From NCBI GenBank assembly GCA_021845465.1, contig JAKBRL010000015.1, forward strand, positions 1-28,193: a stretch of DNA of 28,193 nucleotides. The letters run 5' to 3'. The notes below the pieces were generated by a model. The model searched no databases, was not told the DNA's origin, and was given only the letters and a program-made list of their open reading frames with translations. Of the stretch, positions 3,593-21,204 are shown piece after piece (position 1 is the stretch's first letter; every line of letters starts with the position of its first letter). The stretch comes from Microcaldota archaeon (lineage in GTDB: Archaea > Micrarchaeota > Micrarchaeia > Micrarchaeales > CABMGC01). The position numbers and the translations under genes are program-made.

Positions 3593-3664
3593 GGGCTTGT
3601 AGCGCAACGGCAGCGCGCCCGCTTTGCATGCGGAAGGTTGCGGGTTCAAATCCCGCCAAGTCCA
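3593..3664 (+). tRNA. tRNA-Ala (anticodon TGC)
   Basis: The acceptor stem GGGCTTG pairs with CAAGTCC and includes the G3-T70 wobble that marks alanine tRNAs. The D stem is GCGC/GCGC with GG in the loop. The anticodon loop is TTTGCAT with TGC at 3625-3627; its stem has four good pairs and one C27-A43 mismatch. The T arm is GCGGG-TTCAAAT-CCCGC. The discriminator is A3664, CCA is not encoded, and there is no intron. A T6 tract just after the gene (3666-3671) is a likely terminator. A TATA-like GTATATAAC lies near 3533-3541. Confidence 0.95.
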
Positions 3665-3683
3665 CATTTTTTCCAAGCAGGGA

Positions 3684-18354: not shown

Positions 18355-19905
18355 CTACCTGTATCTATAAAACATGTATGCTGTCGAGATGTAGAAGATT
18401 CCGTATCCTATAAGCCAGAGACCACCATACAGGTTATTTATCATCACTGCAACAATTCCCAAGAGAAAGAGTATGCCTGAAAAGGCGGTTTCTACAATTG
18501 AGTTCTTAAGCGCAAATATTATGTTCTTTTCAGATTTAAGGAAAGATATTCCTGTCCACGAATTCTTCACTGTCTTGCTGAATACCGCAAAAAGAGCAGC
18601 CTTGGCCCTTATAAACGCAAGCGCAAAATTAAGAAGCAGCATCATAAACCCTTTCTTCAGTGATCCGAAATAAAGTTTTGTTACTATAACTGGTGCCATA
18701 AGGGATAACACGAAAGCAAGAACCCCAAGCGTCTCGAATATCATCTCAGGGCTGCCCAGAAGGAAGCCGCCAGGTATGATCATGTTTGGTACTACAGTAA
18801 GGCCCGAGAAGACTATTGCAACAGAAACAATAGTGAAAATTATCAATACTACCGATATGTAATTCAGTCCGAAGCCGTGTGTGACATAATCAACAAGGAG
18901 CCATTTTGATTTAGGCTTCTTGTTACTCTTTCCAAGCAACTTCCCTACAAAATATCCTAGAAACTGTGTATCTCCATAGTTGTATCTCCACTGCTGCTTT
19001 GCAAGATGGCTGAATTTAGTTATAGGCGCTCCAAGAGCATAATGCCTTGGTATGTAAATGCTCTCGTATCCATTTGCATCCGACTCAAAGCTGAAGAAAG
19101 TATCTTCAGTGACATATTCCGGAAAGCCTCCTATCTTCTTCAGGTATGATGTCCTTATAATGCCACATGACCCTGCGAATATTCCTGTATTATTCAGGGC
19201 TCTAGAAGGCTGTATGAACTTGAAGAAAAATCCATGGAATATGTCTACCGTGTCAGAAAAGAAGGTCCCTTTCTGGAATCTCTTTTCTGTCTGTGCATAA
19301 GATAATTTTTTGTTGTTGAAATATGGGAGCAGGTCCAGAATGAATCTGGTATCGACAAGATACTCGTCGTAATCAAAGATGGCAAGGAATTCCTCCTTAG
19401 CATTCATTGCAAAATTGTTAAGCGCGCCTGCCTTGAAATTCCTTCTGTCATCCCTATGTATGTATCTCACATTGTGCTTTCTCGAGAACCTCTCAAGTTC
19501 TTTCCTTATTGCAGGATCTGTAGAATCATCCAGAAGGTAGAAGTTGACCCTGTCCTTGGGATAGTCAACCTCCATCAACCTGAGAAAGTTCCTCTCGGTC
19601 ATTGCTGTGTCTTCATTGTATACTGGCACCGCTACCGCTACAAGAGGAAATCCTTTCATAGGCTTAAGTTTTTTCTGTATCTTCTCAAGATGCTTGTCAT
19701 AAAGATATGATCTGTAGTAACTGTACGATGTGAATGTGTTGAAGAACCCTGATACCGCGGAAAGTATAAGGAAGGCTAAGGCAACAACTCTGCCGAGAAT
19801 AGTATTTGTTGCTACTATCAAGTATACCGAAAATCCTATCCCAAGTATTGTAAGAACCGAAAACAGAAAGATCGAAATTCCTCTCATTGCAAGATTCTTA
19901 TCCAT
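18355..19905 (-). CDS. membrane GT2 glycosyltransferase (cellulose/hyaluronan-synthase like)
   Basis: From ATG 19905 the protein has 516 residues: two N-terminal transmembrane helices (about 8-30, 36-55), a cytosolic GT2 domain, and about four to five C-terminal helices (about 325-500). Catalytic marks are LLDDSTD (D116/D117), FDYDEY (DxD at 168-170), TED (256-258) and QQWRY (294-298, a QxxRW-like motif). This is the layout of processive GT2 synthases that build a polysaccharide and thread it through the membrane. The donor sugar cannot be assigned. ATGs at 19914 and 19917 are alternatives; a TATA element near 19935-19942 best suits 19905. The frame extends upstream through tRNA-Ser but that part is not coding. 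Confidence 0.9.
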   Translation of the reverse strand: MDKNLAMRGISIFLFSVLTILGIGFSVYLIVATNTILGRVVALAFLILSAVSGFFNTFTSYSYYRSYLYDKHLEKIQKKLKPMKGFPLVAVAVPVYNEDTAMTERNFLRLMEVDYPKDRVNFYLLDDSTDPAIRKELERFSRKHNVRYIHRDDRRNFKAGALNNFAMNAKEEFLAIFDYDEYLVDTRFILDLLPYFNNKKLSYAQTEKRFQKGTFFSDTVDIFHGFFFKFIQPSRALNNTGIFAGSCGIIRTSYLKKIGGFPEYVTEDTFFSFESDANGYESIYIPRHYALGAPITKFSHLAKQQWRYNYGDTQFLGYFVGKLLGKSNKKPKSKWLLVDYVTHGFGLNYISVVLIIFTIVSVAIVFSGLTVVPNMIIPGGFLLGSPEMIFETLGVLAFVLSLMAPVIVTKLYFGSLKKGFMMLLLNFALAFIRAKAALFAVFSKTVKNSWTGISFLKSEKNIIFALKNSIVETAFSGILFLLGIVAVMINNLYGGLWLIGYGIFYISTAYMFYRYR

Positions 19906-19931
19906 TTTAAACATCATTCTACTTTGTAATA

Positions 19932-19942
19932 CATTATAAATG
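19932..19942 (-). promoter_or_regulatory. TATA box for the glycosyltransferase gene
   Basis: On the minus strand it contains TTTATAAT. It lies about 32 nt before ATG 19905 and 20-23 nt before the upstream ATGs, so it favours 19905 as start. Confidence 0.5.
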
Positions 19943-20021
19943 AAAGACGAATAAGAATATAACCTTACATATTTAAATAAACAAGCATGTGCCGGGATGG
20001 CAGAATCCGGTATCGCGCCAG

Positions 20022-20035
20022 AACAAATAGGCGAA
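20022..20035 (+). other. tRNA-Ser intron 1 (14 nt, position 30/31)
   Basis: CGCC (20016-20019) pairs with GGCG (20030-20033). The 3-nt bulges AGA (20020-20022) and AAA (20034-20036) follow each strand, and cutting after the second bulge base restores the stem CCAGA. The outer helix is only one pair, so this is a relaxed bulge-helix-bulge. Because of flanking A residues a 31/32 register gives the same product. Confidence 0.75.
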
Positions 20036-20074
20036 ACTCGAGATCTGGTGGCCTTCGGGCTTTTTGGGTTCAAA

Positions 20075-20104
20075 AACAGCTCCCTCTGGCAGGAGCAATG
20101 AAAA
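20075..20104 (+). other. tRNA-Ser intron 2 (30 nt, T-loop position 59/60)
   Basis: TTCA (20069-20072) pairs with TGAA (20099-20102), flanked by 3-nt bulges AAA (20073-20075) and AAT (20103-20105). The T stem itself is the outer helix and GCTCC/GGAGC (20079-20083, 20092-20096) is an inner helix. Cutting after the second base of each bulge leaves the standard T loop TTCAAAT. This is a full canonical splice motif. Confidence 0.85.
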
Positions 20105-20121
20105 TCCCAATCCCGGCGCAT

Positions 20122-21204
20122 CTATCTTGTCACAAGATAGCTCTTCACAGCCTCGTAAAGCTCCCTAGCTTTCCTATTTTCCTCAAAATGCTTCCTTATA
20201 GGCATTATCTTTTCTTCAAGCTTTCCTGAAACAAACGACTTGATGTCCATCGGGTGTATCTTTCCGTCTATGTAAAGCCTTCTCAATTCATTATAATTCT
20301 CTGCAACTATATCTCCTCCGAATTTCTGGGACCTGGCTATGGTTATAGGGCTCTCCCTATTCTCTATTATTATCTTATCTATATAATCAAAGACAGGATT
20401 GCCATCACATATCCTCTCAGGGCAGTATGCAGAGTTTATCTTTTTGGCTATATCTTCACTGCTATCATGTATGGTTATGGAATTTTTCGGATCCGATTTA
20501 GACATCTTAAATTCCATAAGCTTACTTTCATCATCTGTTTTGAGGTCCGGAGGTGCACCCTTAAGCCCCAGAAGAAGCGGATGGCTTACAACTATCGGTA
20601 TCTTCCATCCAAATTTCTGCGCAGCTTCCCTTGCAAGTATGTTTGCTTTCCTCTGGTCTATCCCCAGTTGGCATATGTCTATATCCATCTCGAAGATATC
20701 CGTAGCCTGCATTATTGGATAAAATATCTGCGCCGATGAAAGCGATTCTCCCTCTTTTCTTCCCATTATGGTTATGGCCCTCCTTACTCTATCAAGCGAT
20801 GTTATCCTGCCTATCTTAAGGAACCTCTCCCAGTAATCGAAGCTATGCATAAGGTCCTTGTTCCATATTATCTCGACCTTCTCTGTATTCACCCCTGCCG
20901 CTTTCCATACCTCAACAAAATACATCCCCGCAGTATGTATATGCTCAAGATCTCCACCAAGCTTGTTGTTTATATAAGCAAAATAATCTGCAAGATAGAG
21001 TTTGAAGTTTATTCCTATATCCATGAGCCTCTTAATGTTCTTTGAGCGCATAAGCCCAAAATGTATGCCCGCCAGTCCGGAAGGCTCAAACCCATCATAT
21101 GCAACCGGATGTTCGTTACTCTCAAACAGCATCTTCAGTTCTTCTTCTGTAACTATCTCAGCGGCAAACTCCTTTATTACAGCTATCTTGCCTTCAGTAT
21201 CCAT
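20122..21204 (-). CDS. tyrS: tyrosyl-tRNA synthetase
   Basis: The 360-residue class I synthetase is of archaeal/eukaryal type. The HIGH-equivalent is GLAGIHFG (43-50) after the Tyr-binding YDGFEPSG, and the KMSKS loop is FKMSKSDPKN (KMSKS at 233-237). MQATDIFEMDIDICQLGIDQRK is the conserved TyrRS segment lining the tyrosine pocket and dimer core. The length is normal for archaea. It charges tRNA-Tyr in the cytosol. A TATA-like TTATAAAC (minus strand, 21231-21238) lies about 30 nt before the ATG. It ends 3 nt from the 3' end of tRNA-Ser, tail to tail. Confidence 0.95.
   Translation of the reverse strand: MDTEGKIAVIKEFAAEIVTEEELKMLFESNEHPVAYDGFEPSGLAGIHFGLMRSKNIKRLMDIGINFKLYLADYFAYINNKLGGDLEHIHTAGMYFVEVWKAAGVNTEKVEIIWNKDLMHSFDYWERFLKIGRITSLDRVRRAITIMGRKEGESLSSAQIFYPIMQATDIFEMDIDICQLGIDQRKANILAREAAQKFGWKIPIVVSHPLLLGLKGAPPDLKTDDESKLMEFKMSKSDPKNSITIHDSSEDIAKKINSAYCPERICDGNPVFDYIDKIIIENRESPITIARSQKFGGDIVAENYNELRRLYIDGKIHPMDIKSFVSGKLEEKIMPIRKHFEENRKARELYEAVKSYLVTR

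What the first reader, a model, noticed from the sequence alone, without database searches (positions are those of the whole stretch)
19991..20118. tRNA-Ser(CGA) with two non-canonical introns, one in the T-loop
The acceptor, anticodon and T stems become perfect only after removing 14 nt at position 30/31 and 30 nt at 59/60. Both insertions show splice-site logic: 4-bp helices CGCC/GGCG and TTCA/TGAA with 3-nt bulges, where cutting after the second bulge base restores the mature tRNA in both cases. The T-loop intron uses the tRNA's own T stem as outer helix. Multiple non-canonical introns are known from Thermoproteales; in a lineage like this one they are unexpected and imply a splicing endonuclease with broad specificity.
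Basis: partly seen in the sequence, partly recalled or inferred. Interest (0 to 1): 0.8.

Follow-up and report, generated by a model that had tools for sequence, protein, structure and literature searches.

The report
Twice-interrupted serine tRNA gene
This is a real serine tRNA gene of a tiny archaeon, interrupted by two short introns at unusual places, and it is the kind of gene expected in this group, whose splicing enzyme is already known to remove such introns.

Summary
Window 19991-20118 (+) is tRNA-Ser(CGA) with a 14-nt intron at 30/31 (20022-20035) and a 30-nt intron at 59/60 in the T-loop (20075-20104). ARAGORN finds it only after splicing. Relatives settle the junctions: among 47 genomes of the order with a readable gene, 24 have both introns, 16 only 30/31, 4 a 37/38 intron and 3 none, exons joined where predicted. 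The 4-bp exon-intron helices keep register in 40/40 and 22/24 introns; shuffles average 0.23 and 0.47. Strict 3-nt double bulges are absent: both motifs are relaxed. The claim that this is unexpected in the lineage is wrong. The host belongs to the Micrarchaeota; the nearest genome encodes an ARMAN-2-type (epsilon2) splicing endonuclease with catalytic and ASL residues intact, and RtcB. That enzyme is known for broad specificity, and both intron positions are on a published list (PMC4090602). New member of a known kind. No RNA data exist here. In passing: 37/38 introns of tRNA-Ser in relatives carry a C/D-box-like guide aimed at their own wobble base.

The parts
19970..19979 (+). TATA-box-like element TATTTAAATA, 12-21 nt before the tRNA 5' end
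   Evidence: sequence; the role is inference from archaeal promoter spacing, not tested
19991..20021 (+). tRNA-Ser(CGA) exon 1: acceptor 5' strand, D arm, anticodon-stem 5' strand up to base 30
   Evidence: conserved in relatives
20022..20035 (+). intron 1, 14 nt, position 30/31; its GGCG (20030-20033) pairs with exon CGCC (20016-20019)
   Evidence: empty sites in 3 genomes
20036..20074 (+). exon 2: base 31, anticodon loop CTCGAGA with anticodon CGA (20039-20041), long variable arm, T-stem 5' strand, T-loop bases 54-59
20075..20104 (+). intron 2, 30 nt, position 59/60 in the T-loop; its TGAA (20099-20102) pairs with exon TTCA (20069-20072); inner hairpin GCTCC/GGAGC
   Evidence: absent in 23 of 47 relatives' tRNA-Ser(CGA)
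20105..20118 (+). exon 3: base 60, T-stem 3' strand, acceptor 3' strand, discriminator G73; no CCA encoded
20122..21204 (-). convergent tyrosyl-tRNA synthetase-like gene, 3 nt beyond the tRNA; same neighbour in two named relatives
   Evidence: ORF; the same pair of genes in L006 and L007; the name is my reading of the ORF, no family scan was run on it

Best explanation
A functional tRNA-Ser(CGA) gene of a Micrarchaeota archaeon, with two introns of the archaeal relaxed bulge-helix-bulge kind. The pre-tRNA forms a 4-bp helix between exon and intron at each site (C25-C28 with GGCG; T54-A57 with TGAA); the epsilon2-type splicing endonuclease cuts two bases after each helix strand, helped by its ARMAN-specific loop; an RtcB-type ligase joins the exons to an 84-nt tRNA, and CCA is added afterwards. 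In the unspliced RNA the intron-1 helix occupies bases 25-28, which belong to the D and anticodon stems of the mature tRNA, so excision of intron 1 should precede the mature fold. Shown: exon and intron boundaries (by relatives lacking the introns), helix conservation, presence of both enzymes in the nearest genome. Inferred: cleavage, ligation and CCA addition in the cell. The 30/31 intron is the more widespread one (both families of the order); the 59/60 intron in this gene is seen in one family only.
For: ARAGORN finds tRNA-Ser(cga) only after splicing. Of 47 readable tRNA-Ser(CGA) genes, 24 carry 30/31+59/60, 16 carry 30/31 alone, 4 a 37/38 intron, 3 none, exons contiguous at the predicted junctions. 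Two congeneric genomes (G011, G035) have identical 84-nt exons, one with and one without a 13-nt 30/31 intron. Exon-intron helices in register in 40/40 and 22/24, shuffles 0.23 and 0.47. In 145 distinct T-loop-intron-like strings from the capped listing, exon base 57 covaries with its intron partner: A57 with T 95, with C 4; G57 with T 4, with C 14; 28 of 145 have another base there (Fisher p about 2e-11 on the 117, relatedness ignored). Nearest genome: endonuclease matched to PDB 4fz2 (ARMAN-2) over residues 3-386 of 386, E 1e-143; Y160, K161, Y236, H251, K282 kept in 34 of 34 sequences fetched, ARMAN-2's own genome and G001 among them; RtcB, E 3.5e-163. Nearest genome holds the same 141 bases at 100% and shows no second copy. 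The ARMAN-2 enzyme cleaves BHB and BHL substrates in vitro (PMC12397907, introduction and section 13 read).
Against: No RNA data. The window's own assembly is not held; enzymes and copy number are from the nearest genome (91% of sampled 31-mers, 82% complete). The lowest-energy fold of the whole pre-tRNA forms neither central helix as drawn. Two of 24 59/60 introns break the helix (G016 2/4 pairs, G026 3/4), and 28 of 145 phylum-wide strings have a non-pairing-type base opposite base 57 (some of these strings are not introns). The D stem has an A12-C23 mismatch.
Confidence: 0.94

Rival explanations
1. A decaying tRNA pseudogene with two chance insertions, not spliced.
For: tRNA finders do not recognise the gene; D-stem mismatch A12-C23.
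Against: Exons are conserved while introns vary: 39 distinct sequences among 40 30/31 introns, ending GGCGAA (39) or GGCGAG (1); five genomes labelled as one genus, G001 among them, have 84-nt exons identical to the window's (score 150); no other tRNA-Ser(CGA) copy seen in the nearest genome, which is 82% complete.
Confidence: 0.03
2. A real gene, but the insertions stay in the mature tRNA (expanded anticodon stem and T-loop) or are removed by something other than the BHB endonuclease.
For: Splice motifs are relaxed and folding energy alone does not favour the central helices.
Against: The 4-bp helices hold one register relative to the junctions and exon base 57 covaries with its partner; matches to the broad-specificity endonuclease in 154 of 164 genomes of the order.
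Confidence: 0.02
3. Assembly or chimera artefact.
For: The named relatives are metagenome-assembled (titles), and the window's own assembly could not be examined.
Against: The same gene beside the same synthetase-like gene occurs in JAKBPE010000015.1 (intron 1 identical, intron 2 different) and DAHVAM010000007.1 (both introns different).
Confidence: 0.01

Closest known systems
Non-canonical and multiple tRNA introns of Thermoproteales and other archaea with broad-specificity endonucleases
   Same: 30/31 and 59/60 are both named among known non-canonical positions (PMC4090602, passages seen); several introns per gene; relaxed motifs (hBH, HBh', BHL; PMC6379350, section 5 read).
   Different: Different lineage and endonuclease type (epsilon2 instead of (alpha-beta)2).
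tRNA introns of ARMAN-1 and ARMAN-2 (Candidatus Micrarchaeum acidiphilum) with the epsilon2 endonuclease (Fujishima 2011, not held; Hirata 2012, seen only as cited; Miyata 2025, PMC12397907)
   Same: Same order by the tool's kinship labels; multiple-intron tRNAs listed for ARMAN-1 and 2 (PMC4033280, passages seen). Genome G044, taken as ARMAN-2 because its endonuclease is 100% identical to the 4fz2 chain over 384 residues, has the same kind of 30/31 intron in tRNA-Ser(CGA).
   Different: G044's tRNA-Ser(CGA) lacks the 59/60 intron.
Archaeal tRNA-Trp intron with box C/D guide (Haloferax volcanii)
   Same: Comparable to the 37/38 introns of tRNA-Ser in relatives (PMC4090602, passage), not to the two introns in the window.
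   Different: I see no such boxes in the window's two introns (by eye); see Noticed in passing.

Membership tests
Archaeal relaxed bulge-helix-bulge (BHB-type) tRNA intron | Removal restores a full cloverleaf tRNA | tested here: met
   tRNA-Ser(cga) only after splicing; empty sites in relatives
Archaeal relaxed bulge-helix-bulge (BHB-type) tRNA intron | 4-bp central helix between 5' exon and intron 3' end, cut two bases after each strand | tested here: met
   40/40 and 22/24 in register; covariation at base 57; not the lowest-energy fold
Archaeal relaxed bulge-helix-bulge (BHB-type) tRNA intron | Host encodes an endonuclease of broad specificity | tested here: met
   in the nearest genome G001; own assembly not held
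Archaeal relaxed bulge-helix-bulge (BHB-type) tRNA intron | RNA is cleaved and ligated in the cell | not testable with these tools
   no RNA data; RtcB present in G001
Strict (canonical) BHB intron | Two 3-nt bulges on opposite strands, closed by inner and outer helices | tested here: not met
   sequence, folds: intron 1 lacks an inner helix; intron 2 has a 6 x 2 internal loop at the 5' site
tRNA-Ser(CGA) | CGA anticodon in a 7-nt loop, long variable arm, G73 | tested here: met
epsilon2 (ARMAN-type) splicing endonuclease | One chain with the three-unit arrangement, full-length match to ARMAN-2 EndA | tested here: met
   3-386 of 386 aa matched to 4-387 of the 395-residue 4fz2 chain; PF02778 and PF01974 over cut-off
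epsilon2 (ARMAN-type) splicing endonuclease | Catalytic Y236, H251, K282 and ASL residues Y160, K161 | tested here: met
   all five in 34 of 34 sequences fetched (one is G044/ARMAN-2, one is G001)
epsilon2 (ARMAN-type) splicing endonuclease | Forms a homodimer | not tested
   no complex modelled

The most novel reading that the evidence does not exclude
In this archaeal order the T-loop (59/60) is an intron hot spot under active turnover, served by the epsilon2 endonuclease: tRNA-Ser(CGA) gained its 59/60 intron after the two families split (24 of 30 readable genes in one, 0 of 17 in the other), while the more widespread 30/31 intron is still being lost or regained between congeneric species with identical exons, and in other genomes the gene is replaced by a Ser(UGA)-like version whose 37/38 intron carries a wobble-base methylation guide.
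Probability: 0.6. Interest if true: 0.45.

Novelty: new member of a known kind. Interest (0 to 1): 0.3.

Why it matters
ARAGORN and Rfam missed this gene, so genomes of this group can look short of tRNAs that they have. The comparative set (same gene with two, one or no introns, exons identical in one pair of congeners) is a clean system for studying how tRNA introns come and go together with a broad-specificity splicing endonuclease. It does not change what is known about the mechanism.

Tried and rejected
Pseudogene: rejected by conserved exons and single copy in the nearest genome. Strict BHB: rejected (sequence). Thermodynamics: the lowest-energy fold shows neither central helix as drawn, and my attempt to impose the intron-2 helix did not take (the output was unchanged), so comparative evidence was used. 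A first spliced-alignment run read minus-strand loci in the wrong orientation and gave nonsense for those rows; it was redone on both strands. Row L113 (G014, gene cut by a contig end) was dropped from the 47; its 30/31 intron is seen. Eleven other genomes of the 60 gave no tRNA-Ser(CGA) (G003, G008, G013, G023, G024, G034, G041, G050, G051, G052, G055), and G060 gave only tRNA-Ser(UGA) there; G041, G051, G052 and G060 were later seen to have a tRNA-Ser(CGA) with a 37/38 intron, so the 4 of 47 is an undercount of that type. T-loop pattern scans include rows that are intact T arms followed by chance matches (for example G008:C3 and G007:C11), so genome counts from them are upper estimates; the reversed control matched in 0 of 60 genomes and, by my count of the table, in 11 of 196. 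The listing was capped; one search used 150 strings from it (145 distinct). Fujishima 2011 was not held, so its intron map could not be compared; that paper is known to me by recall and from the reviews cited, and I make no claim that these particular introns are unpublished. Literature searches made. No structure was predicted and no gain/loss tree was built.

Full report
What is there. At 19991-20118 on the + strand the window encodes a serine tRNA with anticodon CGA, interrupted twice. ARAGORN and Rfam report only tRNA-Ala at 3593-3665 in the window. ARAGORN finds nothing in the unspliced stretch, also with introns allowed, and tRNA-Ser(cga) once 20022-20035 and 20075-20104 are taken out. 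The mature product is 84 nt with perfect acceptor, anticodon and T stems, a long variable arm, G73, and an A12-C23 mismatch in the D stem (read from the sequence).

Are the introns real? Relatives answer this. The nearest held genome, G001 (91% of sampled 31-mers, 82% complete; the window's own assembly is not held), has the same 141 bases at 100%. A pattern for the anticodon arm with 0-30 inserted bases matched in 42 of 60 relatives: 39 have 11-15 inserted bases at 30/31, and 3 (G035, G049, G054) have none, with the exons joined at the predicted junction. Spliced alignment of the fetched loci classified tRNA-Ser(CGA) in 47 of the 60 genomes: 24 with 30/31 and 59/60, 16 with 30/31 only, 4 with an intron of about 40 nt that I assign to 37/38, 3 with none (G014 dropped because its gene is cut by a contig end, 12 others without a CGA gene in that call). 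Among the 40 30/31 introns 38 are 11-15 nt and two are 44-45 nt. Genomes G011 and G035, of one genus, have identical 84-nt exons, one with and one without a 13-nt intron.

Are the splice motifs real? In 40 of 40 30/31 introns the exon CGCC pairs fully with the four bases that end two before the intron end; in 22 of 24 59/60 introns TTCA does (exceptions G016 and G026). Shuffled introns average 0.23 and 0.47 full helices, and other registers from -4 to +2 give 0, or 1 in one case. The 40 introns hold 39 distinct sequences yet end in GGCGAA (39) or GGCGAG (1). These counts include shared descent. A broader test used 145 distinct T-loop-intron-like strings (150 taken from the capped listing): when exon base 57 is A its intron partner is T in 95 and C in 4; when it is G the partner is C in 14 and T in 4; 28 of 145 have A or G there. 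Not every string in that list is a tRNA.

Form of the motifs. Neither is a strict bulge-helix-bulge. Intron 1 has no inner helix, its 5' site sits in a 10-nt loop, and beside its 3' bulge only one outer pair (G24-C32) follows; it is closest to the bulge-helix-loop form. The lowest-energy fold of the whole pre-tRNA (-46.1 kcal/mol) uses a shifted helix for intron 1; the fold with CGCC/GGCG is at -45.3, and the intron-2 helix does not appear; the anticodon arm alone forms CGCC/GGCG. The intron-1 helix takes bases 25-28 that belong to the D and anticodon stems in the mature tRNA, so splicing of intron 1 should come before the mature fold (inference).

The enzymes. G001 encodes a 386-aa endonuclease matching the ARMAN-2 epsilon2 enzyme (PDB 4fz2, 9w2k) from residue 3 to 386, E 1e-143; Pfam sees the N-terminal and the catalytic domain. 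Residues Y160, K161 (ARMAN-specific loop), Y236, H251 and K282 are kept in 34 of 34 fetched sequences, which include G044 (ARMAN-2) and G001. Matches to the ARMAN-2 chain occur in 154 of 164 genomes of the order, some of them partial. RtcB is present in G001. Published work on the ARMAN-2 enzyme shows cleavage of BHB and BHL substrates and dependence on Y160 and K161 (PMC12397907; abstract, introduction, section 13 and passages seen).

Is it unexpected? No. Relatives of the window's TyrRS-like gene with the highest identity are in JAKBPE010000015.1 (93%; record titled 'bacterium') and DAHVAM010000007.1 (77%; Candidatus Micrarchaeota), and both carry the twice-interrupted tRNA beside it. G044, whose endonuclease is 100% identical to the ARMAN-2 chain, has a 14-nt 30/31 intron in this tRNA, though not the 59/60 one. 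A review lists ARMAN-1 and 2 among archaea with multiple-intron tRNAs (PMC4033280, passages), and another names 30/31 and 59/60 among known positions (PMC4090602, passages). G001 itself is rich in introns: besides this gene, a T-loop intron in tRNA-Arg(UCU) (spliced form recognised) and, by eye, in tRNA-Leu(CAA) and tRNA-Ala(GGC); ARAGORN reports introns in 6 further loci (some of its identities there look wrong).

Age. The 30/31 intron is in both families of the order (28 of 30 readable genes in f1, 12 of 17 in f2). The 59/60 intron of this gene is in 24 of 30 f1 genomes and 0 of 17 f2 genomes (counted), although f2 genomes have T-loop-intron matches elsewhere. So the 59/60 intron of tRNA-Ser(CGA) probably entered in family f1; no tree was built to count events.

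Verdict. Real, functional by the comparative signs, and ordinary for its lineage: a new member of a known kind. The side finding on guide-bearing tRNA-Ser introns (Noticed in passing) may deserve more attention than the finding itself.

Noticed in passing
L192 (G001 C40:5925-6048), L203-L252; not in the window: tRNA-Ser(UGA), and in some genomes tRNA-Ser(CGA), has a 37/38 intron with CUGA-N-UGAUG boxes like a D'/C' pair and, directly before CUGA, a stretch complementary to bases 31-36 of its own tRNA; the fifth base upstream of the box faces position 34. The pattern (both guide types allowed) matches in 137 of 164 genomes of the order, reversed control in 0. I looked at 50 of its matches (30 given by the tool, 20 G-type ones that I picked): the guide base fits the wobble base in 47 of 47 that the script could read (27 A with U34, 20 G with C34); the 3 lost to a position filter look like tRNA-Ser(UGA) introns. 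Against: G040 (L154) has CGA with the A-type guide. Known precedent: the archaeal tRNA-Trp intron (PMC4090602, passage). Suggests intron-guided 2'-O-methylation of the tRNA-Ser wobble base; box names and the fifth-base rule are recalled.
   Followed up: partly
L110 1500-1600, L194, L193 (G001): Further T-loop introns in the nearest genome: tRNA-Leu(CAA), tRNA-Ala(GGC) (by eye) and tRNA-Arg(UCU) (spliced form called by ARAGORN).
   Followed up: partly
L196 (G001 C36:14900-15200): A tRNA-Leu-like gene with what looks like an insertion in the D-loop region, a possible further non-canonical intron.
   Followed up: no
window 20118-20122: The tRNA 3' end and the end of the convergent TyrRS-like gene are 3 nt apart, so the tRNA transcript may run antisense into that gene. 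Same neighbours in L006 and L007.
   Followed up: no
window 18355-20121 (-): The mechanical ORF of a glycosyltransferase-like gene (my reading of the ORF) runs through the antisense of the tRNA; the real start is probably a later ATG, leaving the tRNA and its promoter in the intergenic region (inference).
   Followed up: no
G014 C54, C40, C42: One genome shows three near-full-length copies (query 9-386) of the epsilon2 endonuclease gene, perhaps strain mixture in the bin (5% contamination listed).
   Followed up: no
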